The notes beneath the pieces were generated by a model, which saw only the letters and a program-made list of their open reading frames with translations, searched no databases and was not told the DNA's origin. Positions 5,701-51,899 of a stretch of 64,000 nt of DNA are shown here, piece by piece. The translations under genes were made by a program, and so were the position numbers. How positions within the stretch are numbered: position 1 is the stretch's first letter; every line of letters begins with the position of its first letter. Source of the stretch: Branchiostoma floridae (taxonomy: Eukaryota; Chordata; Leptocardii; Amphioxiformes; Branchiostomatidae); assembly GCF_000003815.2 (NCBI RefSeq), contig NC_049983.1, positions 23,681,742-23,745,741 on the forward strand, written 5' to 3'.

Positions 5701-7097
5701 GAAATGCTTTTTTCTGCATACCTGCACTGGTGCAGGTAACATTGAAAATTACCTGCACCAGACAAATTTTACCTGCACCACTCTGAAGTTAGGAAGTATG
5801 GATCATACTAAAATTGTTCAGTGACCATTGCTTTTTTTTTCTTTTATACTTTATAGGTGGTCAACAGTCAATGCAGCTAATAACAATCCACATACATCAA
5901 CATCATAGGACATTTATGTACATTTGTATAAAACCAAGTACATGCACCAGTGCAGGTTAGGTACAGGTAGACACCAGAATACCTGCACAGCTCCAATTTT
6001 ACATGCACTAACCTGCATATACAGGTAGTATTTCGAGCCCTGGGATGTAACCTTAAATTATCAAAATGTTACATTGCCTACACAAGACATAATGCTCCAT
6101 ATACATTGTAGCAAGGTCACACTCAAAGTCTACATGAAACAATTTTCTACAAGCAGCATACATATTTCTTTCTGGGGATGCGCCAGGTCTCCCATCTGGG
6201 TGAATGGTGTAAATCACTGTATGTCTTATACTAGAGGAAGGTTTGCCAGGCGTCCATTTGAGTGATTTGAGGTGAATCACCAACTCCAGACAGAATGGTT
6301 TGCCCTATCGCACACCGGGGCATGCCCTACTCTTTTTCGGAATGTGTGGGGGTTGTTCAACGTGAGGTGTGGCTCCTCAAACATGGGACCTCCATTTAAC
6401 GTCCTATCCGAGGGACGGCCCTAGCCAAAGCTAGGTACCTGAGTAAAGTGAAGAATGTCATGCAAATTGAACCCAGGACCTCTTGGGCCTGAGCTCAATG
6501 GGCTGCCGATTACGCCACCCAGTCACGCTGGTTCATTTCGCCGTTATGATATTGCCTTAGTTATCAATTATCAACTATTATGATTTCCTTCCTTTTTGTT
6601 AAATAATATAATTCTTTTGGTTAGTACATAATTGTCTGATGTATAAGTTTTACACTTCTATCCAATGAGTTGTTCAATTGTATTATTATTAGTTACTTTG
6701 GAAGAAGATTATGTATAAGCCATGAGGATTTTTTCTTCCCCCTGCATGTATTTTCATCCGTTAATTTGTTTTATGTTATCTTTTTTTACTGATTGTGCAA
6801 AATAAATCAAATCAAATCAAATCAAATGATCTTTCACAAATCATACAATACTCTGCTGTTATTTTCACTTACTTAACTCTGTTAGTTGGCAAGCTGTTTT
6901 TTGCCTCCTTTGGTCTGAATGGACCATGAGAGATTGGTCAGTAACAGCAAGACATTAAGCACATCTTTCATGTTTACATTACAGGAGGGGATGACTCCCT
7001 TGGATTGTGCAACGGATCCGGAGACTCGACGGCACTGGAAGGTAAATCACTTAGTAGCCCACAACACTTTTCCATCAGTTGGTGCTATTATCTGGTA

Positions 7098-7175
<78 letters not shown>

Positions 7176-18177: not shown

Positions 18178-18285
18178 ATGGACCTGAGGGACTTCTTCTG
18201 GGCTGTGCAGAAAGGTGATGTGCAGACTGTGAGGGAGGGGCTGAAGGCTGGGGTGGACGTCAATGCCAAGATTGACTGGCTAGGG
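18178..18285 (+). CDS. Gene B exon 1: ankyrin N-terminal cap
   Basis: 108 nt, 36 codons, phase 0, donor gtaagg. Starts MDLRDFFWAVQKGDVQTVRE. Three codons longer than in gene A and the same length as in gene C. Confidence 0.8.
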
Positions 18286-21200
18286 GTAAGGATGCTGATT
18301 TTCATTGATCAAACTAAAGGTGGGACTTCTGAAATATCAATTTTAATTAATGTGATTAGTATTTTGATGGAATGGTAACAAACTAGCAGCAACAAGTTAT
18401 TTCGGCTTTTTTATCTGCGCAATATATTGCGGTGCATACTGTTCTCAATATTGACAATTGATAGCCTTACTTGATGATATGTCAACTGCTGAAAAACTAT
18501 TTCAATGTACCATGTTACAAAAAACAGTAATTTGAGCCAAATTGCCAACTATATTCACCAGTGTTATAAATAATCATGTAATTCTGACAGGAAACTGCAG
18601 ATTTGTAAGATATGACATGATTTAGAGTGAGAGCATCTCTATGCAGAAATTTGCTGTCAACAAACAATTATTTCAGACATACCCAAAGAATCTGATCAGG
18701 TTTACTGTGCCTGTGACATGGTTTATCTCAAAACACCGTCAAGGTGTAAGGAATTCCAGACCTACATGAAAGTGAATGTGACATGGCACAACGCCACTCG
18801 GATATTCACATAACATTGTACATACTCTCACTGATAGTGTTCAGGTCAACTTGTCACAATGATGGACATAGCTTAGTTTGGTATTGCTACCACTTAGCTA
18901 TGCCCTACTTATTCACAAGAAGAAAGGTATGAATGAACTATTATAGTATACTCATAATCTCACTTACTCACTCACACTCACTATCTGGTTTAGCATCTGT
19001 TGTTCCCTGTCTACCAGGGGTTAGACGTCTATTTAATATTAAATTACACGTTTGTGCAATTAGTGTATTTGTCTCTGTCCAGGCATTTTGTAACCAGTAT
19101 TGTTCGAACTGTTGTTCTATCCAGCCTCGCCAGTCATCCCTGCATGTGGCCAGCGAGTGCGGGCAGACTGAGGTAGCAGAGCTTCTGATAAAAAATGGGG
19201 CTAAAATGGAGGCGAGGGACGGGGTAAGTAGCTATAACCCTGCTCTCATTTTTCCTGCCCTGTACCGGGACAATGGTGACCATGATGATGTCACAACACT
19301 CACAACATTAATAGTCATCTACTAAATTAAATGATCCCTTCCAAGAAAAAGTCTCATTCAGAGATAGATTGATGCTATTGTTCTGGAGTAAGGTAAGTTT
19401 AAATAACTTGTATATAAAGGCATTTTGTCACTGAGTTTTTTTTCATATTCTATAAATGAATGAATAAATATTCCTTCTGTGGCTTCCCGAATAACACACA
19501 TAGACTTACTACTTGTGCATAATGTACATAATCATTCCCAAACGTCGCTATATTGCAGAATAATAGTAAAAGCACCTGTTTCAAAATGTTAAAAATGGAC
19601 ACACTTTCTTCATACATGAACTTACGGTTTTTGACTTTCACCTACTAGTACTAGCCAGTTGTGCATGTGGATGTCATCCAAGTCAGTGTTGCAATATAGT
19701 AATTAAACGTAATACTAAGGCTACATGAATGACTATTCCATTATTTGCTATCATCTACAATGTATGCACGCAGCGGTTGGTGCAGAAGATTGTGACCTTT
19801 TTATCATATATTATGTTCTTTTCGCACTCCCCATGCGCTAACCTCTGCTGCATGCTTCAAAGGGCCACACTTAAAATTTTACACAGAAGATAACAAATAC
19901 TAAGTTAAGTTATTTAACTCTCTGTCATCTACCTTATTTTATCAAACCAATAATTAGAAATACTTTTGATATGATCTCTAACATTTGAAGTGATAAAAAA
20001 AATTATATTAAATTTTTGTATTCATTTCATTCCACGTTTGCGTTTTTTCATAGCATTTTGTGACAGTATGCTTGTCTCTTGGCAGTCATGTTGTATTCAG
20101 TTACTGTCCAAACTGTTGTTCTATCCAGCTTGACCAGACATCCCTGCATGTGGCCAGCAGGTACGGGCAGACTGAGGTAGCAGAGCTTCTGATACAAAAT
20201 GGGGCTGACCTGGAGGCGAGGGACGAGGTAAGTAGCTATAACCCTGCCCTCCTTTCTACTGACCTGTACCTGGACAATGGTGCCCATGGTGCCCCTGTCA
20301 CAATACTCACAATATTTAATTATCCCTTCCAGCAAACAAGTCCCATTCAGAGATTACCTTGATGCTAATGTTTTGGTATAAATGACTTGTAAAAAGCAAG
20401 GCATTTCATCACTGAGTTTCTTTTGTATGAGAGTCTTGCACTCTGCTCTGGTACTTCCCCTTCCATGGCACACACATTATAATGTTTACAACTGTATTAC
20501 AGAGTAGTAAAATGATCTGTTTTCAAGTTGAGAGTTTCAGTTGTACAAACTTCCCCCATGAATTCACGGTTTTACTTCCACTTACCAAGTCGCGTGTGTA
20601 GATGTCACCTATCAAATCAAGTCAGTGTGGTAGATAATATTATATGCTACTTGAATGAGTCTTCCATATTTTACCACTAAAGGCATTACAGATTCTGAAG
20701 TGTTTTTTTTTTTTTATTTACATAATGGTTATCAAGTAACAAGAGTCTTTACAAGACCCGAAGGCCACTCCAAGGTTATGGGTTACATTTTGCAAACAAT
20801 TGGTTAAGGTGTAAATAGTCTCAATGCACTGTGTAGTTTTATGTAACGTGTTTGTCTTATGACTCCAGGAAGACTATCGATACATTGAATTCACTTGAAA
20901 ATTCATCTGTGTTGGTAGAAGTCATTATTTAGCAAAAATTGGACTCACACGAATTTTCGACTGAACGGCATGCACCAATCTTTTGTATTTACATTGTACT
21001 GACAAATAGAGATCTTTTGAATAAACAAATTAGCAAATTCTTTACGGTGTGATATAAATTTTTTCCCTCTCTTCATAGAGATGACACAATTTTGACAAAA
21101 TACAATCACCATTACCACCAGGTCGACCTCTTCATGAATGAGCCTGAACAGGGAGAGATATTTTGTGTTACACACACCACCTTTATTACTCTTCTCTGTA

Positions 21201-24200
21201 CAGGACCAGGACACTCCCCTGCATAAAGCTGCTGCTGGAGGTCACACCGGGACTTGTGAGCTTCTGATTCGTTATGGGGCTGATGCTACGACCAAAAATG
21301 AGGTGATACATGTACATATTTGCTTACAATGAAGACGTGCATACCTGTTATTGAGTGTAAAGATGGGCATTGGTGATGTAATATGACTTAACTAGAGTTC
21401 CACGAACACATACCTTTGCCAAATAAACCAGGTTTGTTATGTAGAATGATGTCTGTAGACAGATGCATTACTCATTTCATTTTCTTTATAATTATATGCT
21501 TGGAGTTGGTTTATAAAATTTTGGCATTGATTATGCAAATTAGATCCCAAGTTACAATTAATTGATATTAAATTGTATCAAGCATTACTTAAGCTGTCAG
21601 CATACCAAAAATCATGATGATCCTTTGATCCATTCTTGATTTTTTCTCTTTCAAAGTCTTTAAATACACCTCTTACTGTTTTCCCTCTTTCTCAGTTACA
21701 TATGTGACAACTTTGATGAAAGTACTATAATGGAATGCAGTGGATTTATGAACTTTTCCTAATCAATGATGCAACTTAGCTGTTAACTTCCATGATAAGT
21801 ATCACATTATATAAGTCTTCACTTAGGCTATCTACATGCCAAAAATCATGATGATCCGTCAACACGTTCACATTTTCTCATTAATTATGCAAATGAGATC
21901 ATCATTTGCATGAAAAATATGTATTGACATTTCTCTCTTTCTCAGCTACATATGTGACAAGTTTTAAAGTCCTATCATGGAATGTAGTGAATTTATAAAA
22001 TATCCTCATTAATTATGCAAATTAGTTGTTGATTTGCATAATTGGTATCTCATTATGTAGGCCTTCACTTACGCTACGTACATACCAAAAAACATGATGA
22101 TCCGTCAACATTTTTATATTTTCTCATTAATTATGCAAATGAGGCCATCATTTGCATAATTGATATCTATTGACATTTCTCTCCTTCCCAGCTACATATG
22201 TGACAAGTTTTAAAGTCCTATCATGGAATGCAGTGGATTTATAAATTTTCCTCATTAATTATGCAAATTAGCTGTTGATTTGCATAATTAGTATACCATT
22301 ATGTAAGTCATCCCTCATTCTGTCTACATACCAAAAATCATGACGATCCGTCAACACGTTGCAGAGTTATTCTCGTCCAAAGTTTGAAAGGAAACCGGCG
22401 CCTGCAGTTCCATTAAAGCCGCTAGGGGGCCCAACTCACAGCACTTACTCTCTGCCTCGAGGGCTATCTACCGCTTAAAAATTATGATCACAGCATGTCC
22501 AGAACACGAGATATCAAAAATTGATGTTCTGCTGCAGTACCTTAGCAAGCCGCTAGGGGGCCCATTATCGAACTTGACCTTCGTTTTCCCGACCCCTACC
22601 CACCTACCAAATATTATCGGGATCCATCCAAGACTTCTTGAGTTACGCTGTTAACAGACAGACAGACACACAGACACACAGACTCACAAGCCCAAAACAT
22701 AACCTTAGCCATTCTGGCAAAGGTAAAAATGTTATTTACTACTACAGTTCAGTTCAGTTCAGTTACAGTACATCCTCTCCGTCATCTGTACATACAGGAC
22801 CAGGGCACTCCCCTCCATGAAGCAGCTGCTGGGGGCCACACCGGGACTTGTGAGCTTCTGATTCGTTCTGGAGCTGACGTTACGACCAAAGATAAGGTGA
22901 TTTATATTTGTTCCAACTGACCTTTATCACATATTTTGTCTATGAATACATGTAGTACCAGTCCTCACCCTTGCATTTGGCTGCTGCTGGAGGGCACACT
23001 GAACGTCTGTTTTGTTCTGGAGCTGATGTTATAACGCAGGATGCAATAAAACATAGTTTAACTGAAATGGACTTTATTAGATTCATATATGGATGTAATT
23101 GTCGTATTCTGTAATGTTACGTTGAAGTTTACACAAGAAGAATGCATCATGTAACAACAACACTGACTCAAAAACAACATGGATAATCTAAACTCATTAA
23201 CTCAATAACCTCTGAGGACATGTTATCAAGTTGCACGATGGTAAAATTTGGCCCCAAAATTTCCAGACTTCTATGTGGGGATTTAGAACACGAATCATCT
23301 TCCATCGAACAGAACGCTGGCGTGATCGAACAGAACGGGCGTTCTATTTGGGGTCATCCGAGGTCACCCGCAGGTTGTTACAGTAAACACGCAGCAAACA
23401 CCCTCATTTTCCCGGGTGCCGTGCGTCAGAAGAAAAACAAACATTTTCACAAATATAAACCGTTATTTGGCAAGCTTAGTTTTGCTGCCGCTTAGTTTGG
23501 AACATGTGACATGTATTAAAGCTGCTGGCGTCATTATTGGTGACCTTGAATGTTACAACACTTGTTTACGGCGGTATCAATTACTCTATGTCACTATCAG
23601 TGCGACTCGACATAGGACCAAACATGGTATTTAAATCGATGGCAAAACGCGTGCAAATCAACTCTTTCAGGACTTATATTGTCGACAACTAATATCTCCA
23701 GCTTTGTGTCTTAGGGATTTTTGGAACATGGAGGCAATTTTGAATTACGAGTGTGGTGGTCGCTGCAGCTACTTATTAATCTTCCTGTCTTCCCTGTACA
23801 GTACCAGGACACACCCTTACACAAGGCTGCTGCTGGGGGCCACACTGGGATTTGTGAGCTCCTGATTCGTTCTGGGACTGACGTTATGGTGAAGAATAAG
23901 GTATTAGTTACTTGTTTCAAATAGACCTCACAAGACTCTATGGACGTAATATTTGTCTGCTGTAATTGTACATTGAAGCCTACACAAGAACACTGCATCA
24001 TGTAACAAACATATGAGGCCTTAACCGAAAACAGTGACACTCAAAAATAACATGGATATTACATAAAATATGAATTTCTGTCCCTGTACAGTAGTCTCTA
24101 CCAGACTCTGGGTCGCTGGAAAACGGTAGAAATGGCACAAATAGAGGAGTAAGGAGTGTAGCCGGCCAGGGAACAGTACGCGACCTGCGGCTACACTCCT

Positions 24201-27200
24201 CTGGCCGGCTTACTCCTCTATCCAGCAACCCGGAGTCTGGTAGAGACTACCTGTACAGGACCAGGATACATCCCTGCATTGGACGGCTGCTAGGGGCCAC
24301 GTGAGCTTCTGATTCGTTCTGGGGCTAATGTTATGGCCCTGGATAAGGTAAAATAAATCTAAGCTTATTTCAAAAATTCAAATGGACCTCACATTTTAAT
24401 ATATTCATTTGTTGAATGCAAAGCTGGGCATTGTTAACATTTTTATTAACAACACCATGTCCTTCCTCCCTGTACAGCACCATTCCACTCCCCTGCAAAA
24501 AGCTGCCGCTGGGGGCCACACCGGGACTTGTGAGCTTCTGATTCGCTCTGGTGCAGACGTTGACACAGCCATAGATAGGGTGATATACATTTGCTTTAAA
24601 GGAACATTTGAATATTACATTGTGTTAGAAACATGTTTGTTACTTTAAAGTCTGTTTTTGTTCAATGGCGGCGCTAACATTCGTTGTATTTTATTATTAA
24701 CTAACTCTGTCCCTATTTGGTTTATCATCTGTCCTTGTTTATTTATATAATACTTTGCTTATTAAAAAAACTAAACACTGCCCGTCCTCCCTGTACAGGA
24801 CCAGAACACACTCCTGCATCGGGCGGCTGCTAGGGGCGACACTGGGACTTGTGAGCTTCTGATAAGTTTGGGGGCTGGCGTTATGTTCCAGAATGAGGTG
24901 AAACAAACTTCTTTGAAATAGACATAACAAGATCTCAAATGTATGCAATCTTCTTCCGCAGTAACTTTGAATCTAAGACTGCACAAGAGCAGTGCATCAT
25001 AACAATCAAAATCTACATATGGTCATCAATCGTAGTCAACAGAGCACTACATTGAGTCAAGGAACGCAACACAACACCTGCATAATGATGCTTCTGGGGG
25101 CCACGACGAGACAAGGATAATCTAAACTCAATAAAATGTGATTGATGTATTACTCCGAGTGGGTACCCTAAAAGATATCCGAGCCAAAAACCGAACGGCT
25201 GCATGGACGCATGTTTTTAGCGGTGAGAAATTCCCTATTAGCCAGCCGAACTGATATCAAAAGTTAGATTGGTGAAAGCCTGCTTGTGACTGAAAAATTA
25301 GCAGGTAAAGTTTGACAGCCGCGCGCTGAGTCGGAGGTACACATTCCTGGGTTCTGAGTGGTGCGGTTGTACACTAGCAGCGAAAAAGTGCCTTTTGCGG
25401 GGATTGACTAATTGTACCTTGTAATTGCTATAAACAACAAACCTATGGATTCTAGTCATTGGCAATTTTTTCAATTATATAGAGTACATTTGCTCAACAT
25501 AGAATGAAAAATCTGCTGACATTTCATGTAGCTTCATTATGAACGCGACCATGTAAAACACGAATTACAACATAGAAGTCTATGGAAAGAAGAAACTCAT
25601 CAATGAGACCTTAAGTTGGGCATTGGCTATGTTATGTCATTAACATTAATATTATTACTGAGTCTAATACCATGTCTGTCCGCACTGTACAGGACCAGGA
25701 CACACCCTTACACAAGGCTGCTGCTCGGGGCCACACTGGGACTTGTGAGCTTCTAATTCGTTCTGGAGCTGATGTTATGGTGAAGAATAAGGTATTAGTT
25801 ACTTGTTTCAAATAGACCTCACGGACTCTGTGGACGTAATATTACGTAACATTGAAGCCTACACAAGAACACTGCATCATGTAACAATCACACTCACTCA
25901 AAAACAACGTGGATAATCTAGCTAAACTCAATAACTCAGTAAAATGTGAATAAATTATTAAGTTGAGCGTTGGCAATGTTATGTTATGAACAGCTCAGTA
26001 CTGACCATGTCTGTCCTCCCTGTACAGGACCAGTCCACTCCCCTCCATAAAGCTGCTGCTGCTTCTTGGCACCACACTGAGACTTGTGAGCTTCTGATTC
26101 GTGCTGGAGCCGATGTCACAGTCACAGATAAGGTGATATATATTTTTTTCAAACTAACACGTGAATACATGTTATCAAATGCAAAGTTGCAGTGTTGGTG
26201 AAGTTACGTTATCCGTTGATACATGGCGTAAATTACAATAAGGCAGATAAGAGAGGGATGTTCGCCAGGCCTCCATCCTGGTGAATCACCAACTCCAAAC
26301 AGAATGGTTTGCAACATTGCACACCGGGGCATGCTCCTTATACTTTTTTTGAAAGGTGTGGTGGGCTCTTAAACATGCACGCACGTGGGGTGTGTCTCTC
26401 CTCATAAATGGTACCTCCATTTAACGTCCTATCAGAAGGACGGCCCTAGCAAAAAATAGGTACTTATTTTCACCTGACTGAAGTGGTGAAAGTTGTGAAC
26501 CCAATGCGTTGCAGATTACTCCACCCAATCACACATCTTTCACAAGATACTGTATTTGCTGTTATTTTGCTTAGTAATACTTAAGTTTGTTAGTTGGTAA
26601 GCTGATTTGTTGCCTGCTTCAGTCGGGATAGACTATGAGAGATTGGTTTGTAACAGCAAGATATCAAATGCATCTTTCATGTTAACTTTACAGGAGGGGA
26701 AGACTCCCTTGGATTATGCAAGGGATCTGGAGACTCTACGGCACTGGAAGGTAAATCGCTTAATAGCCCACAACACTTTTCCATAGGGTACAGTCATTTG
26801 GTGCATATCAGGTGAACTCTGATCACCGGCAGTAGGATAATAGTGTGGTTTTAGTGTGCACAGAATGTTACATGTATTTACTACCAGCTACTCTATGATC
26901 TGTTGCTTTGTGGGAAGACTGTGATAATAAACAATTTACAACTAGAGTTTGACGACCTCATACCTCCATGAAATATGTAGAGCTTTTGTAGATTTCATGC
27001 AATTGACATTTAACATAATTTATGCATGGTGTTGTTACTAACGTACATATGTCACAATTATTAAATTCCCATCATTAATCATAAGAGGTTTTGCAATTTT
27101 GATATAAAGTAAAGTAAGTTCCTCATTACCATACTTGGTATCTGCTTATAATCCACCTATCATAATTAACATGTTACATTTATGGATTCCGTAGTTGTTA

Positions 27201-30200
27201 TTGAAAATAATGGAATTATACAATTTCCTCTTTAATTATGCAAATTAAGTCCTCATTTGCATAAAATGTATATCATTATGAATATATTTGCCTAAGCTAT
27301 CCATCAATCCTTTCTGCAGTTATCCTCTTTGGAATGTCTCAACAAAAATGCCTTTGCAGTTTAGAAATTAAATGTTAGGGGGCTGAAACTTGCCCCACTT
27401 TGTCATGACACTTAAAGCTAGCTATCACCCAAATGTCAAGACCATATCACGTCCGGGACAAGAGATAGATAGAAAAAACTGCTATGATAGAATATTCTCA
27501 TTAATTATGCAAATGTACACATATTTTGCATAATCAGTGTTTCATTTTGTACAACATTGTCTAAGATACCTACAAACCAAAAATCATAAAAATCCGTTGT
27601 TCCCTTCGTGAGTTATGACAAAGTCCTTTTTACCAACAAGCCCTACCCATTTTGCTAACTGGGAAGTGCTAAATGGTACCGCCCACGCGTGGGGGTCAGG
27701 GACCCGTGGGCCTTAGCTACTGTCAGGTTAATGGCTGCAAAGGGTGAAAGGAAGCAAACCAGCTGCAGGCTTAATAAGGGATTTATATTGCTTCAGAAGT
27801 TTTTGACAAAAATACTCCTGCCATCCCAAAGCTAGCCGCTAGGGGGGCAAAACTTTTGTTACTAATTCCTGAGATAAATAGCTATCTTACACCGAAAAAA
27901 CGTGACTTCAAAGCTGACTTCAAGGCTGTTTTGAAACAGATCATCCCGCATGCTGCTGAGATGGTCCAAGGAAACGCCAGTGACCTGCTGTGTAGCGAGG
28001 ATGAGGACCCGCTCATCAGGAATCGCACAAAGCTGATCCGGGACCTGACGTCATCGTCCGTCATGGGGGACGTCCTGAACCATCTCCTGTCACGTGACAT
28101 TCTCAGCGATGAGGAATACGAGCGTATCAGGGCAAAGGAAACACCCCGAGACAAGGCAAGGGAACTGTTGGACATCATGCATACAAAACACAAAAGCGCA
28201 AGAGATGTATTTAAGGAAGTCTTGAGAGAGGTCAACCTGCATGTTGCAGAACTGTTGACGTGTAGAGAGGATGAGGATCCGCTCACTATGAACCGCCCAG
28301 AGCTGGTCCAGGCCTTGAGAGATGTGGAGCCAATCCTAGACCACCTACAGGCATGTGACACCCTGACTGCCAAGGAGTGTGATGTCATTAGGGCAAAACA
28401 ATCACCCCAAGACAAGGCAAGGGAACTGCTTGACATGATAGGAAGAAAAGGTGCCCCTGCAAGTCGCAAGTTTAAGGATGCCATGGATGAGGTAAACCCG
28501 CATGCCGCCGAAATGATCAAAGACTCCAGTGACCTGCTGTTTAGAGAGGATGAAGATCTAGGGATTGAGGATGTATCAGGTATTCTTCTATTTGTCAATA
28601 GGCAAAATACATGTAACGATACTCACAGGTTCTAGAGCATACAAAATGCAATAGAGATTTATTGAATATTCTATAATATCCTACTAATATACAACAAAAA
28701 CTAACAATGTTAACCTTTCTGCAGTCCTGCAGTATCACAGGTACTGCAACAGTGACTATTTGTTGTTAATCACAACAATTATGGTTCCTTTTGGAAATTG
28801 GCTTAAAGTTTGTGTTGTATGCTAAATACTACTGCTGCAAAATACCACATGCCAGCATGACTGATAGAAGGAGAAAACAATTCAGTTCAGTTAAATATGA
28901 TATCATTCACACCAATATAGTATCAGTCCAGTAATTATGTCTGAGCGTCTCATGGAAGAAGTTATAACTACAAGTATGGGTAGTTCACAAAGCTTTTGAT
29001 GACTATCATCAATCAAGTTGTAAAGTAGAATGCACATGCTCTATTGTCCAGGTGACCCTGACGTGCCCATTGAGGTCCTGCTGCGGGGACCAGAGATGGC
29101 AAGACTTTATTCTCAAGCCAGAGACCAGGGGTTCCTGACTGTCCACAGCACAAGGGTTCCGGTGGTGGGGCAGTTCAGGTCAGGCAAGAGCTGCTTTATC
29201 AAGAGGCTGATGGGAGAAACAGTCAGGAAGGATGAGGAGGAACCCATCACGGATGGAATCCACATCATTTCTGATGTCCAAACCAAGACATGGAAGAAGT
29301 CACCAGGTTTGAAAAGCATGCTGATGACTTTTCATTTTTCTGTTACTCTTCTTTCTGTATTTTCTTTATCATCTGTCTTGTTCATGAATGTTTTGGATGA
29401 TTCAAGAATTGATTCTATTCCACTTCCTTTCACTCTACAGAGGAGATAGATGAATTAGCAGGACCATTGCTACCGACAGAGACCTCAACAGGTGATAAAT
29501 TAATATGTTGATTTGGTAAAGAGTGTTGCTTTTGTCTCACCATCTAGAATTGAAAGCTTCTGTTTTATACGTCAAAAAGCATTTACTCAAGCAACTAGAT
29601 AACAAGACACTGACAAAAGATAGTGGGTGCTTTCTTGTGAAGGGAAATAACAGGCCACTAGGGGTGCTAAAATAAGATGTACATTTTATAAACTAAGGCA
29701 ATTCTCCCAAAATTGCACGATACTGGAAAGAAATTGTGCCGGAATTAATGCAAAATAATCAATATATTCTAGTATTCTAAACTCCAGAATCTGAATGCAG
29801 TTAGAGGATCTAGAGATTTGTATTTTTAACAAAATTTTGATTTGAAAACTACTTAATGGCAGTTATGTTGAATTTCACTTTGTTAGCCAAAAATTTGGTG
29901 CAGAATGAATCAAGATACCAACAGTTTTTTTTAAGCATTCCTTCATTCTGCCTTTCATTACGTCAATATTAGCTCCCACTCACAGTGCTGCACTCTATAC
30001 AGGGCAGGAAATGGGTCTTGAGGAACAAACTATGCCAGACTCACCAAGCCTGGATAATCAGGGACAACCTCAACCAGACTCACCAAGCCAAGAGCATCAG
30101 GGACAACCTCAACCAGACTCACCAAGCCAAGAGCATCAGGGACAACCTCAACCAGACTCACCAAGCCATGAGCATCAGGGACAACCTCCACCAGACTCAC

Positions 30201-33200
30201 CAAGCCAAGAGCATCAGGGACAACCTCAACCAGACTCACCAAGCCAAGAGCATCAGGGACAACCTCTATCTGACTCACCAAGCCAAGAGCATCAGGGACA
30301 ACCTCAATCAGACTCACCAAGCCAAGAGCATCAGGGACAACCTCTATCTGACTCACCAAGCCAAGAGCATCAGGGACAACCTGAACCAGACTCACCAAGC
30401 CATGAGCATCAGGGACAACCTCAACCAGACTCACCAAGCCAAGAGCATCAGGGACAACCTCAACCAGACTCACCAAGCCAAGAGCATCAGGGACAACCTC
30501 TATCTGACTCACCAAGCCAAGAGCATCAGGGACAACCTCAACCAGACTCACCAAGCCAAGAGCATCAGGGACAACCTCTATCTGACTCACCAAGCCAAGA
30601 GCTTCAGGGACAACCTCAACCAGACTCACCAAGCCAAGAGCATCAGGGACAACCTCTATCTGACTCACCAAGCCAAGAGCTTCAGGGACAACCTCAACCA
30701 GACTCACCAAGCCATGAGCATCAGGGACAACCTCTATCTGACTCACCAAGCCAGCAACAGACTAACATCAAAGACGACCTGTCGAAAGTCATGCCAGAGA
30801 AACAGAAGACCGATGTCATTCCAGACAACCTGCTTGAATCTGGAGAGAGAATGCTGAAGGCGGGTATTACTCAGGAAGAGCTTGGCACTGCCACAAATCC
30901 GCGTCTGTCCTTCTGGGATTTCGGCGGCCAGGCCACTTACTACGGGACCCACCACTGCTTCATCACCCCCCAGGGAGTCTACATCCTTGTCATGTCTCTG
31001 CTGCAGAAACTGTCGGACCCTGTACCAGATCAGGACTACATGGCATCTGTGGACAACCTGAGAACAGGAGGAGGTATGTTCCACCAGGTCTCGAAATAGT
31101 TCTTGCTTCGCAGATAATATGATTCTGCACACTTCTGTGTTTATTAAAAAATGCTAATGATAAGACCAAGAAGAACTAGCAATGCAACCCTTTCAATGGT
31201 TCATAACTTAGAGAACTCAGACATATACATTTTTATAACTGTTACAATGCTTATATTCTAATTAATGAGAAGTGTCTTTCTACAGACTACCTGGACCACT
31301 GGCTCAACTCAGTTCACTCTCACACACAGCAACACAAAAAACAGCCTCCCGTCATCATTGTCCTCACGCACAAAGACATGGTCTCTAAGGTGTGGTTATT
31401 TTTGTTTCCTACAAAATAGTCTCTTTGCTGTAGCTTTTCTCATTTGATCCGCAGGGGAACACAACACTTTGTGGTTCATTGTGGAGTAGACTGCCAAACA
31501 ACCGAATAGCAAATAATTCAACCATATATGAATCTAATTAGTCTATTTATTGTTCCATAATGCTAATGTACTCACAGTGCAACTCAAAGTTAAGGTGACT
31601 GTTTAAAGACTTATATGATGAACATAATGTTAAGATTAGTATATTTGCAAACAACTATGTCGGCATTCTACAGGAATACATTGACAAATATAAGGAAGAG
31701 ATACGGAGCCACATCAAGAGGAAGGCGGCAGGCAAGCTGGTCATGTCAAAGATATTTGCAGTGGACAACACAACTGAGGATGCAGCAGTTGACAAGATTC
31801 GTGACTACATACGACAGGTAGCAAGAGAACTGCCGCACATGGGCGAGGAAATCCCCATCTCATGGCTTCATCTCAACTCCAGACTGAAGACAAAGAGGAA
31901 AGAGGCTGATCCGTTTTGCACGTTCCAAGAAGTAGTGGAACTCGCCCGAGATCCTGACATCAGCATCACAGACAGGCACACCCTCGCCATGGTTCTCACC
32001 TTCTTCCACGATCGAGGTGACATCATCTTCTTTGACGAGCCCAGTCTCCGTGATGACGTCACCCTGCAGCCACAGGTGATGATTGATGCCTTTAAGACCA
32101 TCATCACAGTTCCTCCATATCAGCATGGCAGAAAGACGAAACCAAGGAATAAGTGGATGAGTTGGTTACTGTCAAAGATTCTGAAAAAGAAGAAACAACA
32201 GAGAGGCCCGGACCTGAGCAAAATGTGGGAGAGACTGGAACAGGAAGGGGTCCTCAGTGACGAGTTGCTAACAAGAATCTGGGAGAAGAAGGACGAAGAA
32301 CTGGAAAAACCATTTCTGCTCCGATACAAGTCCTTCCTGAAGGCACTCATGGAGAAGTTCTATCTCATTTGCAATGCCACACCTGTAGGTGATGCCAGCG
32401 AGGAAGCCCAGCAGAATGAGATCTATTTTGTGCCTGCGCTCCTAAGCTGTAAGAGGGACAACGCCAAGTTATATCCCCGCAAAATGCATGTCTGTCCTCA
32501 GCCACTCTACTTCGTGTTCAGTGAGAAGTTTCTACCCAGCGGCATGTTCTGCCGTCTACAAGCCTTGTGTGTACGCAGGTTTGGACTGAAAGAGTCCTAC
32601 GTGTTTGCCGGGTGTGCCCGTTTCCCTACAGATGTACAGCAGGAAACATTCGTCATCACCAAAGTCAACCACTACTTGAAGGTGGAGCTTCTGTCGTCCT
32701 CCAAAGTCTTCACAGAAGGTCTGCGCGTCAGGAAGTTCCTCAGTAGCGCCCTGTTTGAGATCAAAGAGAAGTGGATCCCCTGTATCCAGTACAAGCTCAA
32801 GTTCTGTTCTACACTACCAGAGGAAGGAAGTGAACCTGCATTTCAGACATTGCCAACAGGTGATGGGCCAGTGGAACAGGATTCAGGGTAAGGATACATA
32901 ATCTATGAAGTAAGGTACTCAATCTATTGATCTACGCCATCTTTGGCAATTTACATTAAATTTTGGACTATTGTGTAGATTTATGTCATAGATAAACTTA
33001 GCTTCATCTTTGAGGTCATACATTTCATGTACTTGCAGCAGAATTTCCAAGTGCTGAATCAGATGCATATTGATTACTAATAGTCTAAATCAAAAGTGAT
33101 GAGAAAGCAATGGAAACTAACATCTTCAGCAGGATACATTTGGAAGTTGAAAATAACGTAGAGTAACTGATTCCATGCACCGTTTTCTTTTCAGAGTACC

Positions 33201-36200
33201 ATCTGAGTTTCGCAAGGTTTGGATGACTGGTATCTCGCAAGCTCATCGAACAGGTAATTCCACTTATCAGATTACACATTGTACAGGGCATAATTTGTTA
33301 GGAACTAAACTTGTTCCTACTTTTTATGATTATGACAATTACATGAAAACTTTGCTTAAAGCATTACACCTTAATTATATATATCGAGCCCAATGCACCT
33401 CCTTTGTATCTGTACGACTGTTAGGCATTTGTTCCTATGGCGTCACTCTTTCAATTTAGAATGATTTCTGAAATCTAAATTGCACAGAAAACTCAGGAGG
33501 AGACGGCCCAGTGATACTTCAGCCAACGGGGGACCCCAGCAACATGCGAACGATTGGCCCAGTGTTGGACACGATGGAGCTGGGGAGAGGGTTGTCACTG
33601 GACCAGTGTGACAGTACTAGGAGCCAACTGACGCCGAAAGATCGGGTCAACAACCTAGTGAGGCTAGTAGAGAACCGTTGCCTACTGGGAGCTGCGGTGG
33701 AGATGTGCTGTCCAGAATTTGCAGATTGCTTCTTGAGGGAAGAACGAGGTGTGTTATTATTGATCATGGACACATTTTCTGCAAGTGCTAATTTAATTTT
33801 ATCTCAACCTAAGCTCAATCATAGAGTAGAATAATCATAATCAAGAGTAGAATGGAAGCCAATAAGGTTTGATGATAATTCAGATAAAACTATTCCTCAC
33901 CCAAACTTTATTGTACCCCCCCCCCCTCCCCCCAAAAAAAACCTTCATTACAGACACGCCAAAAATAGTTACTCAAGCAACTGGATATGGTTTTGAAACG
34001 GTCAGACGTTTCGGAAAGAATCCACTTTCCTTCGTCAGTGACACTGAAGTGACCTGCAAGAAACACTGTCAGGTCTTTTATACTCTAACTATGAATGAAG
34101 ACAATTTCAGATGTCCAATTGGAAAGGTTGTAAGACAATTCAGACTGAAGACAATTTGGATTCCAAAGAAAACAAAGCTAAGCCAAAGTCAAGCTGAAGA
34201 CAATTGGATTTCAAGGGATATCAAGGCTAAGACACAGTTAATGCAAATGAGTCAATTAGCTCCTGTTGTTTTAGTTACAGGAGCTAAAAGTTTTGTTGGC
34301 GGGGGGGGGGGGGGGGGGGGTAGTGCTATGTCCCAAGTGCCGGAAAGTTCCATGCGTAGCCCCCCTTTTCTGTTGAGGGTGGGATTGTATATTCTCTCAT
34401 ATATGGCCCCTCTATATGGCCTTCATTACAGGCTTTGTGAAAAATTTTGAGTCATTTATCATTCTTTTTTCATTTCAGGAAAAGAGGTTGTCATTCTCCA
34501 CACAGATGACTACATGGAAGAGTTCATCTCGCCTCTCCAGACAGCCGCTTCTGAATCTGGCCTGTCCTGTCACACAGAGATTATCCAGCCTACTGACTCC
34601 ATCACAGAGAAAACAGTGAAACTTCTGCTCAACACAAACAACAGGATGGTTCTCCTAGTCATCACTCCCCAGACCCTACATCACGAGCACTGGTCAAACC
34701 TCGACTACGAGTTCCCAGTTCGGAACGGGAAGCTCCTGCTGCCCATCCTGCTGTACCCACGAGGTTCCAGAGACAGGATGGTCCGGGTGCTCCAGCAGCG
34801 GGCTCCAGTGCTGTGCAGCCTGGTGCGTGAGGAGATAGAGATGGATGGGACGGCAGTGTCACAGGAGAGGATGCACGAAATCTTGAACAAGGTACAAGTT
34901 ATACTTTATTTGTAAATTCCTACCATAGTTTGCCCTAAATGTGAATTATTTGGTTAAGCATTTTGTCCACAATTTACAACGCGTGCCATATACTACACAT
35001 GTATGTTGTCCACTGGTGTCTTAACTTTGAATGAATGTTACACGTTGTTTGTCTTGTTTACATGTATATATGGTGGGCCCCCTTGGAATTTAAAAGTCAT
35101 AGATGCCCACTCGGTTTGAGATGAATAAATAAACTTCAAGATCATGAAATTCTAATGAGATTCTTTTGATATATATTTTTTCAGGTCATGACGGATGAAG
35201 AAAAGGGTGAGTTTATGATACTGATACATAAATAAAAATCATTCTTAACATGCAACAGCAACAACTTACCTCAGCACATTCTGTGTCATTATGCAAAGCT
35301 TCATCATTCTTACAATATGCAGTCTTGAGAATCTTGATAAAATGTTCACTTCATTTCTGTAAAATATCCAAAAGCATAAATCATCAAAGGGGTATAAATG
35401 CCAAACATATCATTTGTGATCCTCTTAGATTTTCAGCAGATGTTAGGAAGCATCTTTGACCAGCTGGATGAAACAGATGTAAGGTTACTTCAGCGGGTGT
35501 GGTCAGCGCGTATTGGTCAACAGGAAATCGCAGGGACAGAGACGCCACATGACGTGATGAGGGCGAAGGTGAAGAGTGGATACATCTCAACTGGTAAGTA
35601 ACGGCCCTCCCACATCCATCTTTCCATGCTTTATGTCATGTGATGTGTTAATGGGAATATTTCCATTTACTGGTACTTTCAAAGGTGAATTTACATGTGA
35701 CAGATATTCACTATCAATAAGCATGGTAGATTTCAAATCATTTTTTGTCTTGTTTTTGCTGTAAATGATTCTTGTGAGTCTTTTTTACAATGCTCAAAAC
35801 TGCAGAAACTCCTTGAGTATACATTATGTATTTCAAAACATGTTTTTCTGTAGCATAACATAACACATTCAAGGACTATCTTTACCATTTCAGGTGACCT
35901 CGGAATGCCACAACTGGAGAAGGACATGATGGCAGCTGGGATCAGCCTTCCTGCTCTTGTGCGAGACATTCCAGGTTGGTTTCAAATTTGCCGATCAAAT
36001 TCTTACAACTAGTCACAGGCCACTACAATGTGTTATTCATGTAATGAACTGAGCTGAGTATGCACTAACAAGAGTGCCAAGACTACAATCTGACGTTGGT
36101 CCTCGATTGTCGTTTGTCCCCACATGTTAACTAAATGCATGATAAAGAATGTATTCAGTATCATTTCAAGCTCAAGTAGTTAATCTGAGATGAAGCATGT

Positions 36201-39200
36201 TGTTACCAGTCCTGACAATTTAGCTTCAAATTATGTCATTCGTCTAAGCCACTCTTGTTTTGCGTAAGTCATCTATCCTTTCAAAAAAATGAGTTCTGTA
36301 CAAGTGTTGGGAAGACAGCCAGGTGGTTTACATAAAAAATCAAAGTTTGCTTTTTGCATGCATCTAATCTTAGTACTTTTGATTTGATTCTTTAGGAATA
36401 CCCAATGAGTTACATTACGTTAAGACCACAAAGGCTTTTGTGGGACCAACGGGTGGGGAGATGGAGATTTCCGGTTTTGCCAAGCTTGTTGTACCACCAG
36501 GGATCCTTCAGCAAGACACAGCTGTCAGCATCTCCATCGCAGACATACCTGGCATCTTAAGGGGTGAAGAAGGCTTCAGCTGGCTCTCCGACTACCCCTG
36601 GTCCCTCGGTGAGGACGCCTACCCACGTGAGCTACTGGATCATGTGCTGTTCTCCCCAGCTGTTGACGTCAACCTACACGGTGCACAGCCTGATGGACCC
36701 ATGGAGTTACAGACGTGGCGGCCTCCTGGTTCTGAAGGCATGCAGTGTGTTCTGCTGAAGCATTTTGATGGAGAAGGCTGGGCAGATATCACAGCTTCAA
36801 CCACACACCAGATATATTCGGACAAACTGTCCATATCTATGCATACCTTCTGTCCCCTATGTGTGGTGTGGACCACGCTTGTCGATGTGGGAAAGCTGAT
36901 GACATCCGTGCTGTCGTCAAGAACTTTAGATTGTAGGTTTTCAGCGTACATCAAGTCACACGAAGAGGATGTGGATTTCCATGTCGTCTGTAGAGATAAG
37001 GCTGTTGAGAAAGAAGAGTACCGCCCTGGGTTCGAGGTGTGCGGAAGCAACAAAGCCATGTTCGATCTTTATCATAGGAATGATATTGAAGTTGCTGTCA
37101 GTGTCCAGAATGGCCAGAAAGAATCCAAGACAATAGAGCTTCGTGCCCAGCTCTGTTGCGAAGAAGACGGACAGAACGTTCAAATGTTCCTGGACAGGCC
37201 AAGCGGGAAACATCTCAAGGGTGATGTGATCATCAAGAGTGCTCATGAGCGACCCCCTCGGACCGTATGTGAGTTCAAGTTCCGGGAGGTAAGAGCTTCC
37301 AAGAGATGATATCACTAGTACTGAATAGGTTGTATTTTGAGACAAAAAATGTAGCGGTTCAAAACCAAAGCAGACAGCTTACGGTTTGATACCAAACACT
37401 TCTTTATAAAGATTATTTTGATAAAATTGTACCCACGGCAGCCATTGTTGTGGAAATGCTATGTTGCCCATTGGCAAATAACATAATATATGAGTGTTTT
37501 TATTCTTTTTAGGAAGGTCGAGTCTCCAACAGTGAGTACATTTTGCCCTTTCGTAAATGTAATGCTTTTTTGTGAAGATTGTATAAAAAGTCTAGGAATG
37601 ACAAAATTTCCCTCAGATTTTTTGCAATGACAAATTTTTATTTCACTGTAATTTGGTTTCAATGGAAACAATGGGCACAGTTTAAGTTAGACGTATAAAC
37701 TAGTTATTATCTCCAACTTCAATGTCATATAAACATGTGATACGTGAGGAAACACACATAGTACACATACATGTATATAGTAACTTCCTTTGCAGGTAGT
37801 GGCAACAAAAATCAATGGTAATTCCTGCCAATGTCTTGGTTTATATTTTACTGTTACATACCTGATGTTATGTCCTGAGAATTTTACCAGAATCAATTGT
37901 GATTACATGTTTGTTTATGTTTAATGTTCATTCATGCTTGTCAGGGGACAGTAAGAGGACTGATGGCCACCATCCTGACACATCAAAACCTCAAGCCAGG
38001 TCTGGAGGCGTGCAAACTGAATCCAGTGCCCAAGGTACTGATGCGCCATGGTGCGCTGCATTGCCCTCCCAAATCTCAGTCATACCGTCAATGCATACTA
38101 GAAGACTTTACCAATGTACATCTAATGTCTGACTGAAGGATATAGAACGTAAACCCAATAGAATTACATCTGATATCCGTGGGTTATGCAAACCTATGCA
38201 CTTGCACTTGATCCCGACAGCTCAATCCTGATCACAATTACTCACAGTTCCTCTCCTTCTCTCTCTGTTCTCTCTCTTCTGCTTCCCTCTCCTTCTCTCT
38301 CTCTTCTTGAGTGAGTCCTCGCCTACATTTTGCCGTCAGCGATGATCCCACTTCTGACACCACGTGTCAGGAGGCGCGAGACTGAAGTGTACTCTTGAAC
38401 TTCTTTAATCCATGAAATCCTACTAAATCCAGTACTAGTGACTCAGGGCTAGACCTTCTCCTGGCTCTCACAACCCTGGAGTGAAGCTCTGGTCTCTATC
38501 TCCAGTTTTTCTAGGTCACTAGCGGGCCAAACTAAATCTTTATCAGTGACCCCGTCCCATCTCATCACAGTGTTCTTCAGAATTTTTATGAAGCCTTTTC
38601 AACTTAACCGGTAATCGGTACTATCCTTACCCCAGAAGGAGCACGTGAGACCGGTGGTGCTCAGCCAGCAGATTCCGCCACTCAACCACCCAGAGGTCCA
38701 GCAGGGGCTGAAGGACCTGCCTCTCAGAAAGAGGGTGAGGTTACTATACTTTTTGTGAATTGCAGGAAGAATATCTTCTTGGTGGAAATCTATGTGTGTA
38801 TCAAAATTTGAACAAAATCATGTTATTTTGCTACTTCAGGTACTGAAAGTCTGGGTTTTAACATTCAATATTTGCTTTTCCATGTAAACGATGAGAACGA
38901 GACCTTGACCCCTCATCCATTTGCCAGATGGCGTGAACAATGGTTTTGAAAGGAGCAAAAGTATTTTCCATTAATTTTCTTACCCTTTGTTTTTTGTGGT
39001 TTGCAGAGGGCTTTAAAGCGCCAGTAGTCCTATTCGTCAATGACGAGTATGGGACTTCCAAGGGGGGGATTTCTACTATCAACAGCCAGATGGTCCAAAC
39101 CCTGACCGCAACCAATGCAGTCGTGTACAACACTGCCCTGCGTGTGCCAAAACGAGACCAGGAGACAGCAGACAGAGACGGCGTCCAACTGATACAGCCA

Positions 39201-40238: not shown

Positions 40239-40635
40239 AGGTGTACTGAAGCCATCCGAGATGTTCCTGGCCACCACATTTTGATCTTGGAGACAGCAGA
40301 AGCTCCTGCTGGCCATCGGCAGGGTGAGGAAAGTTGAGAAACGGAAAGGTCCTGACCTCGCAGCACAGACCTGCCTGGCAGACATGATCAGCGACCTGAT
40401 CCAGCCAGAACACAGGCACGTCATCGTGAAGACGACCGTGAACGACTCCGATATTGCAGGAGATGCAAAGAGATGGGCGAGCAAAACCATCGACATCCTC
40501 AAGTACAGCAACTCAGAGTTCGAGAAAGCTGCCAAGTTCAAGCTGGAGTTGGTGGAGTCCAGTTTCTGGGAGGAAACCCGCCGCAACTTCCTGCAGGCCT
40601 GCGGCATCCCGGCTCTGACCTCTGCAGATCTGTAG
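40239..40635 (+). pseudogene. Truncated tandem copy of the GT4 exon
   Basis: Starts with 'gaagccatccgagatgttcc', matching 39578 on, then repeats RKVEKRKGPDLAAQ and, after an internal deletion, CLADMISDLIQ through to NFLQACGIPAL and a TAG at 40633-40635. The deletion removed the E-x7-E core. The 103 codons after 40324 are open, but it lies behind the gene B stop without its own start or acceptor. Confidence 0.8.
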
Positions 40636-51889: not shown

Positions 51890-51899
51890 ACACAATATA

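What the first reader, a model, noticed from the sequence alone, without database searches (positions are those of the whole stretch)
18178..40238. One continuous reading frame joins ankyrin, CARD, Roc-COR, TIR-like, ZU5-UPA and a glycosyltransferase
28 exons can be joined with consistent phases into 2,599 residues. The combination of a Roc-COR GTPase switch, death folds and ZU5-UPA with a C-terminal GT4 enzyme keeping its E-x7-E pair is one I do not recognise as described. Known ZU5-UPA proteins such as PIDD or UNC5 carry a death domain where this one carries the enzyme. Inference: a cytosolic sensor whose output is glycosylation of a target.
Basis: partly seen in the sequence, partly recalled or inferred. 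Interest (0 to 1): 0.9.

Follow-up and report, generated by a model that had tools for sequence, protein, structure and literature searches.

The report
Immune sensor fused to sugar-transfer enzyme
One amphioxus gene appears to join sensor, switch and cell-death-signalling parts to a sugar-transferring enzyme, and gene relatives in the same genome carry a death domain where this one carries the enzyme, so it looks like a natural swap of one immune output for another; the general idea of such enzymes in animal immune proteins was already published.

Summary
A 28-exon chain, partly hand-chosen, with consistent phases gives 2,577 residues (reader 2,599). Phases alone are weak evidence: my chain finder split the region, inside Roc, unless extra genes were penalised. 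Paralogs in the same genome decide it. Two cluster copies repeat Roc-COR/CARD-like/TIR/DED-like/ZU5-UPA/GT4 in order, most exons with the same phases. A microexon follows ZU5-UPA in 8 of 8 loci examined, 19 bases in 7. The GT4 exon has a phase-1 acceptor in 8 of 8 cluster copies. ZU5-UPA paralogs elsewhere lead to a Death exon, 4 of 4 fetched, also with a phase-1 acceptor: GT4 probably replaced Death by exon exchange. Folds support ZU5-UPA and TIR; GT4 is Pfam GT4-conflict, E 2e-70, E-x7-E kept. The concept is not new: Kaur et al. 2021 (PMC8195603) proposed GT4 effectors in animal immune proteins and bacterial AP-GTPase-COR proteins. New here: this architecture, the mapped swap, a FIIND/GT4 paralog. 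Glycosylation output is inferred; the ankyrin-CARD join is weakest.

The parts
18178..18285 (+). exon 1, start codon MDLRDFF...
   Evidence: homologous start of gene 1 in the window (EMDLDTFLTAVREGDVQTVRRGL); donor score 3.6; the chain finder chose 18151
19125..26750 (+). ankyrin-repeat exons 2-11 (19125-19223, 20129-20227, 21204-21302, 22798-22896, 23802-23900, 24478-24579, 24799-24897, 25693-25791, 26028-26132, 26694-26750), phase 0 throughout
   Evidence: Pfam Ank 9 stretches, E 2.6e-70; splice scores; exact repeat count uncertain
27940..28579 (+). exon 12, CARD x2 (open frame runs back to 27778 with a further half CARD, by eye)
   Evidence: Pfam CARD E 3.7e-37, 2 stretches; acceptor -0.3, phase-1 donor 0.1; same order Ank-CARD-Roc in L053+L015
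29052..29306 (+). exon 13, Roc N-part with P-loop GQFRSGKSC
   Evidence: phase-1 acceptor shared with L029 and L030, ATG not shared; 255 bases, phase 1 to 1 in three paralogs
29441..29491 (+). exon 14, 51 bases, phase 1 to 1
   Evidence: same length and phase in three paralogs
30003..31073 (+). exon 15, tandem-repeat insert inside Roc, then WDFGGQ motif
   Evidence: 39-base repeat x18.4 at 30035-30753; Pfam Roc
31286..31389 (+). exon 16, Roc C-part with THKD motif
   Evidence: same 104 bases, phase 1 to 0 in three paralogs
31674..32887 (+). exon 17, COR
   Evidence: Pfam COR-A 48.5 bits on the single ORF, 46.7 bits spliced; dN/dS 0.23-0.28
33195..33253 (+). exon 18, linker VPSEFRKVWMTGISQAHRT, 59 bases, phase 2 to 1
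   Evidence: identical peptide in L009, 68% in L029 and L053; the chain finder chose a 22-base version in the window and another exon in L029/L014
33488..33748 (+). exon 19, CARD-like death-fold domain (DDa)
   Evidence: dN/dS 0.05-0.17; matches a CARD of gene 1, E 2e-5; no Pfam hit on its own; acceptor -1.0
34479..34891 (+). exon 20, TIR-fold domain
   Evidence: predicted model pLDDT 83; Foldseek hits 1-23 all TIR, best E 4e-6
35185..35206 (+). exon 21, 22-base microexon, phase 0 to 1
   Evidence: same length and phase in L014, L009 and L015
35429..35974 (+). exons 22-23 (35429-35593, 35894-35974), DED-like segment (DDb)
   Evidence: Pfam DED E 0.07 only, below cut-off; dN/dS 0.24-0.39
36396..37288 (+). 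exon 24, ZU5-UPA
   Evidence: fold match to ankyrin-B and UNC5b; 8 of 11 aligned members hit Pfam ZU5 at E up to 1, not the window itself
37513..37531 (+). exon 25, 19-base microexon EGRVSN, phase 0 to 1
   Evidence: 19 bases after ZU5-UPA in 7 of 8 loci examined, 25 in the eighth
37945..38734 (+). exons 26-27 (37945-38034, 38636-38734), hydrophilic linker, phase 1 to 1
   Evidence: this frame meets the phase-1 GT4 acceptor; seen in recent copy L014, not found in L009
39007..40238 (+). exon 28, GT4-conflict glycosyltransferase; E at 39903 and E at 39927 form E-x7-E
   Evidence: Pfam PF20706 E 2.3e-70; phase-1 acceptor; codons checked
40249..40632 (+). partial second GT4 tail after the stop (not part of the protein)
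   Evidence: tblastn pieces 70.7 and 63.7% identical

Best explanation
The stretch is one gene for a cytosolic immune-receptor-like protein. Ankyrin repeats, and perhaps the CARDs, sense or scaffold; Roc-COR is the GTP switch and dimeriser; the CARD-like, TIR-fold and DED-like domains recruit or polymerise; ZU5-UPA holds the C-terminus shut or helps it cluster; and the C-terminal GT4 enzyme is the output that related ZU5-UPA proteins deliver through a death domain. The enzyme probably got there when a phase-1 GT4 exon replaced a phase-1 Death exon behind the ZU5-UPA microexon. Shown: gene order, phases, selection, folds, catalytic residues, Death versus GT4 ends among paralogs. Inferred: the replacement event, sensing, switching, release or clustering, and sugar transfer to an invader or host molecule.
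For: Same domain order in L029+L014 and L030+L009, most exons with the same length class and phase; in L053+L015 the line Ank-CARD-Roc-COR-CARD-like-TIR recurs, then Death and FIIND before GT4. Roc exon acceptor phase 1 in the window, L029 and L030, ATG only in the window; phase-1 donors end the window's CARD exon (score 0.1) and the COR exons of L030, L011 and L013 (2.2-3.9). Even at low gene penalty the chain finder kept CARD-like...ZU5-UPA...GT4 as one gene. Microexon of phase 0 to 1 in 8 of 8 ZU5-UPA loci, 19 bases in 7, starting E/K-G in 7; 0 of 32 control stretches of 700 bases held an E/K-G microexon (some loci were scanned over longer stretches). GT4 acceptor phase 1 in 8 of 8 C5-cluster copies; 4 of those 8 have an in-frame stop and no ATG before the domain. 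Death domain in 4 of 4 fetched non-GT4 ZU5-UPA loci, each with a phase-1 acceptor (scores 1.0-1.5); a coordinate search puts a Death exon within 3 kb at two more. GT4 co-location 4 of 12 against 0.01 expected. dN/dS 0.05-0.49. GT4 E299, G302 and R214 invariant in 23 sequences including three bacterial ones.
Against: No transcript or protein evidence. The chain finder split the region into two or more genes unless a second gene was penalised strongly; the split fell in the repeat exon, where a second frame is open, and cuts Roc. Several exons of the final chain are my choice, not the finder's; in the paralogs too the finder's chain differs in places: L029/L014 has another exon 18 and a 0-to-0 tail, L030/L009 has one extra exon, ends ZU5-UPA early and skips the microexon. 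Weak splice scores: exon 12 acceptor -0.3 and donor 0.1, exon 13 donor -0.4, exon 19 acceptor -1.0, exon 26 donor 0.1. Linker exons 26-27 are seen only in the recent copy L014. Two of the four Death exons also have acceptors of another phase nearby, and linker exons between microexon and Death exon were not resolved. At L021 a stronger phase-2 acceptor lies four bases from the phase-1 one. ZU5-UPA was found upstream of GT4 in only 3 of 20 fetched GT4 regions, so GT4 does not depend on it. The CARD comparison with L053 gives dN/dS 0.77 on a poor alignment. Enzyme activity and immune role are untested.
Confidence: 0.6

Rival explanations
1. Two genes: an upstream Ank-CARD gene ending near exon 12 and a downstream Roc-COR...GT4 gene starting near exon 13.
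For: Ab initio chains split at low penalty (one search ended one gene at 28635 and began the next at 29036); that ATG lies in frame just before the Roc exon; the exon 12 donor is weak; upstream modules differ between copies: CARD in the window, gene-1-like COR in L030, none found in the 6.4 kb of L029.
Against: The ATG is not shared by L029 or L030 while the acceptor is; phase-1 donors in the window, L030, L011 and L013 match; Ank-CARD-Roc order recurs at L053, although that copy is recent.
Confidence: 0.18
2. The GT4 exon is a separate gene with its own start (ATG at 38940) inside the last intron.
For: The frame runs 24 codons upstream of the domain through an ATG with a hydrophobic stretch.
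Against: That stretch is the pyrimidine tract of a fair acceptor (3.3); L014 lacks that ATG, though another in-frame ATG lies in its tract; L009, L010, L012 and L015 have an in-frame stop and no ATG before the domain; the ZU5-UPA microexon needs a phase-1 partner downstream.
Confidence: 0.06
3. The fusion is real but GT4 is a sensor or binding module (sugar nucleotide or glycan) rather than an effector enzyme.
For: The effector role rests on position and on the published proposal (PMC8195603); no activity is known for this family here; the protein has other possible outputs (CARD, TIR, DED-like).
Against: E299 and G302 invariant in 23 sequences and E307 in nearly all; its place is taken by Death in relatives, an output domain.
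Confidence: 0.25
4. The locus is a decayed or chance assembly of duplicated exons in a fast-turning cluster.
For: Truncated GT4 tail at 40249-40632; near-duplicate ankyrin exons; some weak splice sites.
Against: No internal stop in 2,577 codons (exons chosen to be open); dN/dS 0.05-0.49.
Confidence: 0.05

Closest known systems
Metazoan GT4 conflict proteins (Kaur et al. 2021, PMC8195603; passages and section 15 read)
   Same: GT4 enzymes in marine invertebrates including cephalochordates, joined to death-fold and other immune domains; effector role proposed
   Different: The pattern named in the passages read puts GT4 before TRADD-N and LRRs; Roc-COR plus ZU5-UPA plus GT4 in one animal protein is not named in what I read (Figure 6 source data not seen)
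Bacterial AP-GTPase(Roc)-COR proteins with C-terminal GT4 (same paper, section 15)
   Same: Roc-COR switch with GT4 in the C-terminal effector position
   Different: LRR sensor instead of ankyrin; no death folds or ZU5-UPA named; not seen in the four bacterial GT4 ORFs I scanned
PIDD1 / UNC5 / ankyrins (ZU5-UPA-DD)
   Same: ZU5-UPA module; fold matches ankyrin-B and UNC5b
   Different: GT4 in place of DD; Roc-COR upstream; Cys instead of Ser at the F/S position
NLRP1 / CARD8 (FIIND-CARD)
   Same: FIIND is a ZU5-UPA form; a cluster paralog (L015) has a FIIND upstream of GT4
   Different: GT4 where these have CARD; cleavage serine not evident by eye in the L015 reading
Coral glycos_transf_1 domain-combination proteins (PMC12314368, passages read)
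   Same: Expanded genes joining a GT domain to ankyrin, TPR or NACHT-LRR
   Different: No Roc-COR or ZU5-UPA named in the passages read
DAPK1 and other Roco proteins
   Same: Ankyrin plus Roc-COR plus death fold (recalled)
   Different: Kinase and DD instead of GT4

Membership tests
GT4-conflict glycosyltransferases (PF20706) | profile match over cut-off across the full model | tested here: met
   238 bits, cut-off 26, positions 1-380 of 385
GT4-conflict glycosyltransferases (PF20706) | retaining GT-B catalytic E-x7-E | tested here: met
   E299 and E307 of the GT4 exon; motif recalled
GT4-conflict glycosyltransferases (PF20706) | sugar transfer | not testable with these tools
   needs an assay
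Roco proteins | Roc and COR in tandem | tested here: met
   Roc 45.6 bits (cut-off 27) and COR-A 46.7 bits (cut-off 35.3) (the repeat array was shortened in the typed query)
Roco proteins | P-loop, DxxG and THxD motifs | tested here: met
   GQFRSGKSC 608, WDFGGQ 975, THKD 1055; motif names recalled
ZU5-UPA-DD proteins (PIDD, UNC5, ankyrin) | ZU5-UPA fold | tested here: met
   Foldseek to 4d8o E 2.3e-12 and 3g5b E 2.9e-9; model pTM 0.49 and TM 0.36-0.39 over the whole chain, so domain placement is unsure
ZU5-UPA-DD proteins (PIDD, UNC5, ankyrin) | C-terminal death domain | tested here: not met
   GT4 exon instead; no hit of a Death query in C5 23.58-23.98 Mb (150 of 259 candidates scored, and it also missed the Death domain of L015)
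ZU5-UPA-DD proteins (PIDD, UNC5, ankyrin) | F/S autoproteolysis site | tested here: inconclusive
   window has FC; FS in 5 of 11, FC in 5 of 11, CS in 1
TIR domains | TIR fold | tested here: met
   Foldseek hits 1-23 TIR
TIR domains | catalytic NADase glutamate | tested here: inconclusive
   conserved W-S-x-L-x-Y-E, spacing not settled
NLR (NACHT/STAND) receptors | NACHT or NB-ARC ATPase | tested here: not met
   Pfam scans of the exon and spliced segments show Roc-COR, no NACHT

The most novel reading that the evidence does not exclude
This amphioxus cluster is a natural combinatorial effector-exchange system. Roc-COR/ZU5-UPA or FIIND receptors, which elsewhere signal through Death or CARD domains, have had that last exon replaced through phase-1 introns by a bacterial-type conflict glycosyltransferase, apparently twice (C5 and C3), so that the receptor's output is direct enzymatic modification of an invader or of the infected cell. 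In the FIIND copy an NLRP1-like release of a UPA-enzyme fragment would be conceivable.
Probability: 0.3. Interest if true: 0.82.

Novelty: new variant of a known kind. Interest (0 to 1): 0.6.

Why it matters
It shows the site and probable route (phase-1 exon exchange behind a conserved microexon) by which an adaptor output was replaced by an enzyme output in an animal receptor family. That makes the published proposal that GT4 enzymes are immune effectors directly testable: related receptors (Death-linked ZU5-UPA 51-59% identical to the window's) with Death or GT4 ends exist in one genome as natural controls.

Tried and rejected
Rejected: consistent phases as proof of one gene (the chain finder splits at low penalty). 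Rejected: reading linker exons 26-27 in the 0-to-0 frame that the finder preferred (GTVRGLMATIL.../KEHVRPVVLS...), because it forces a GT4 acceptor at 39090 inside the domain and drops NDEYGTSKGG; one search had chosen 39007. A control meant to force a single gene on neutral sequence returned nothing, for the target too, because of a floor in my scoring (last lines); not used. The script ended in an error after printing the alignment and frames used here; its donor step was run again. PDB sequence search gave only distant GT-B hits for GT4 (best E 7e-5), none for ZU5-UPA and one meaningless hit at E 0.55 for TIR. Rfam: nothing. Autoproteolysis: in the 11-row ZU5-UPA alignment a His present in 7 of the 8 other rows (Asp in L019) is Phe in the three C5 rows, and the F/S serine is Cys there. 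I could not show that this His is the CARD8 His-270 counterpart (PMC3210808, passages), so loss of cleavage is only a lead.

Literature searches behind 'not found'. Supplements could not be read, so the source-data tables of PMC8195603 may list this very protein.

Rows dropped before the counts: the two pieces at C3:32.299 Mb were merged (13 ZU5-UPA hits to 12 loci); of 25 TIR hits two were merged and 7 weak ones (E 1e-5 and weaker) dropped; of 65 COR hits 7 weak ones (E 1e-9 and weaker) were dropped and the rest merged to 32 loci.

Full report
What was checked. I rebuilt the gene on the + strand from open frames, splice scores and comparison with paralogs. Consistent phases are not proof. My chain finder gave several shorter genes over 15-42.5 kb at a low gene penalty, two genes at penalties 8 and 20, and one gene of 24 exons and 2,387 residues at 40 and 80. 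The final chain departs from that one by hand at exons 1, 5-7, 9, 18, 19, 24, 25 and 28. In the chains printed by these runs the part from the CARD-like exon to GT4 stayed one gene.

Domains. The N-terminal piece gives nine Ank stretches and two CARDs. The middle gives Roc (45.6 bits) and COR-A (46.7 bits), both over Pfam cut-offs, with P-loop, DFGGQ and THKD in place. A 39-base tandem repeat, 18.4 copies, sits inside Roc between P-loop and DFGGQ, and paralogs carry inserts of other lengths there. Exon 19 is CARD-like by resemblance to a CARD of gene 1 (E 2e-5). Exon 20 has a TIR fold (model pLDDT 83, Foldseek hits 1-23 all TIR, a flavodoxin next). Exons 22-23 are DED-like only at E 0.07. Exon 24 is ZU5-UPA: no Pfam ZU5 hit for the window itself, hits at E up to 1 in 8 of 11 aligned members (best 6e-4), fold match to ankyrin-B ZU5-ZU5-UPA-DD, UNC5b and weakly NLRP1 FIIND (model pLDDT 75, pTM 0.49, whole-chain TM 0.36-0.39 for ankyrin-B and UNC5b). 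Exon 28 is Pfam PF20706 'GT4-conflict' (E 2.3e-70). E299 of its E-x7-E pair is invariant, and E307 nearly so, in 23 aligned sequences, three of them bacterial.

Why it is one gene, C-terminal half. The genome holds at least 57 GT4-conflict exons (57 of 102 candidates scored), eight of them in a cluster around the window (C5 23.58-23.97 Mb). I fetched 20 upstream regions; 3 of 20 hold ZU5-UPA (L009, L014, L019). L014 and L009 carry CARD-like, TIR, DED-like, ZU5-UPA and GT4 in the window's order, and the adjacent stretches L029 and L030 add Roc and COR. Gene chains made separately there recover the 255-, 51-, 104- and 22-base exons and most other phases. They also differ: L029/L014 uses another exon 18 and the 0-to-0 tail, L030/L009 has one extra exon, stops ZU5-UPA early and skips the microexon. 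L014 is a recent copy (ZU5-UPA 96%; DNA 93% over 37003-37831 and 97% over 37922-38187); L009 is not (ZU5-UPA 69%, GT4 55%). A distant copy on C3 (L019) has ZU5-UPA (36%) before GT4. After the ZU5-UPA exon a microexon of phase 0 to 1 is the best or only candidate in all eight loci examined (19 bases in window, L014, L009, L019, L031, L032, L033; 25 in L034). It starts E/K-G in seven and RD in L019; none of 32 control stretches of 700 bases had an E/K-G one. The GT4 exon has a phase-1 acceptor at the domain start in 8 of 8 C5-cluster copies and in 14 of 21 rows overall; seven rows (L016, L017, L020, L022, L023, L025, L027) show none above the cut, and in L021 a stronger phase-2 acceptor lies four bases on. 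Four of the eight cluster copies have an in-frame stop and no ATG before the domain, so GT4 there cannot start with its own ATG.

Why it is one gene, N-terminal half. The first Roc exon has a phase-1 acceptor shared by the window, L029 and L030, and the window's ATG before it is not shared. The upstream module ends with a phase-1 donor in the window (CARD exon, score 0.1), in L030 (a gene-1-like COR exon) and in L011 and L013 (COR exons upstream of GT4). The locus L053+L015 repeats Ank, CARD x2, Roc, COR, CARD-like, TIR in one line, but its CARD exon is a recent copy. The ankyrin-to-CARD join is the least certain: the chosen acceptor (27940, score -0.3) leaves out half a CARD that is open upstream. 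For L029 no upstream module was found in the 6.4 kb seen; the joined L029+L014 stretch holds 2,562 N.

Selection. Against L029/L014, L030/L009 and L053/L015, dN/dS is 0.05-0.49 for Roc, COR, DDa, TIR, DDb, ZU5-UPA and GT4 (one simple distance method; no DDb or ZU5-UPA match in L053/L015). The CARD comparison gave 0.77 on a poor alignment.

The exchange of ends. Of 12 ZU5-UPA loci in the genome, four have GT4 downstream within 15 kb on the same strand (expectation 0.01 if uniform; the three on C5 are kin). I fetched the downstream stretch of four of the other eight (L031-L034): 4 of 4 encode a Pfam Death domain (E 1e-12 to 4e-16), each with a phase-1 acceptor (scores 1.0-1.5; L033 and L034 also have one of another phase nearby). 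Linker exons between microexon and Death exon were not resolved. A coordinate search with a Death query puts a Death exon 0.7 kb downstream at C8 and 2.8 kb at C17:14.05 Mb, a weak one 8.7 kb downstream at C9:4.75 Mb, and none near C19:6.439 Mb (150 of 259 candidates scored). So Death is the commoner end and the C5 cluster carries GT4, in the same intron phase. The ZU5-UPA tree groups the three C5 copies (99/98) and leaves L019 on a long branch. The GT4 tree puts L019's enzyme in a clade of C3 and distant C5 copies (98/100) apart from the cluster enzymes. This fits two ZU5-UPA/GT4 couplings, though one old one is not excluded. Within the cluster, GT4s behind ZU5-UPA, behind FIIND (L015) and behind a plain Ank-Roc-COR (L011, L013) fall in one weakly supported group (83/94) with L009 and L012 unresolved. 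Window gene 1 (2.5-11.6 kb) is Ank-Roc-COR ending in CARDs. Similar receptor stems thus carry CARD, Death or GT4 ends. The L015 paralog has Death (5e-7) plus FIIND (E 6.6e-31) upstream of GT4, with an assembly gap of 2,240 N between them, so that join is not shown.

How it probably works. Established for the families (recalled): Roc-COR is a GTP-dependent dimer switch, CARD/TIR/DED-like folds assemble by like-to-like contacts, ZU5-UPA gates a C-terminal output in PIDD, UNC5 and NLRP1. Here that output is an enzyme with intact catalytic glutamates. Kaur et al. 2021 (PMC8195603, section 15 read) propose that such GT4 domains modify invader molecules or block interfaces. I take the enzyme-output reading as most likely, with a sensing or binding role for GT4 as the main rival. 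In the window the F/S cleavage serine of ZU5 is Cys and a His present in seven of the eight other rows is Phe, so release by self-cleavage may be lost; this is a lead, not a test.

Known or new. The idea of GT4 effectors in animal immune proteins, including cephalochordates, and of Roc(AP-GTPase)-COR-GT4 in bacteria, is in PMC8195603 (passages and section 15). Coral proteins joining a GT domain to ankyrin or NACHT-LRR are in PMC12314368 (passages), and a figure legend of PMC11508797 lists GT among NLR domains (passages). PMC2575513 (passages) describes amphioxus domain shuffling in general; its text has no occurrence of ZU5, Roc or glycosyl. I found no text naming Roc-COR with ZU5-UPA and GT4 in one protein (searches; most papers seen as listings only), and source-data tables were not readable. 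Verdict: a well-supported fused gene and a new variant of a known kind. On checking, confidence in the best explanation was lowered from 0.62 to 0.60 and the two-gene rival raised from 0.17 to 0.18, because the paralog chains agree less fully than I first wrote.

Noticed in passing
window 2683-11611 (+): A sister gene: Ank, Roc, COR and CARDs in one line with its own stop at 11611; cluster copies L011-L013 carry GT4 after a similar Ank-Roc-COR.
   Followed up: partly
L053+L015, C5:23955888-23974887: Paralog with Ank-CARD-Roc-COR-TIR-Death-FIIND upstream of GT4; FIIND E 6.6e-31; assembly gap between FIIND and GT4.
   Followed up: partly
window 30035-30753: 39-base coding tandem repeat (18.4 copies) inserted inside the Roc domain between P-loop and DFGGQ; insert length differs between copies.
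   Followed up: partly
window 40249-40632; also ends of L010, L012, L013: Truncated second GT4 tail directly after the intact GT4 exon; short DNA matches at the same place after the GT4 of three other cluster copies.
   Followed up: no
L030 (C5:23591001-23600999): A gene-1-like COR exon lies directly upstream of the second Roc, suggesting a tandem double Roc-COR protein in that copy.
   Followed up: partly
L009 and L012: Linkers before GT4 are long repeats of GGSTEAPH-like units.
   Followed up: no
window 55160-64000 (+): Further ankyrin exons, apparently the start of the next cluster gene.
   Followed up: no
window 51655-52275 (+): ORF that looks like the end of a LINE reverse transcriptase (by eye, not tested).
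   Followed up: no
window 56200-57089 (-): Overlapping ORFs made of a repeated peptide (VIPGYRGQKCPFLVKNWSK...), by eye a tandem repeat of unknown nature.
   Followed up: no
C17:16178962-16193358: COR, TIR, two Death exons and GT4 in one line without a ZU5-UPA hit, another end arrangement.
   Followed up: no
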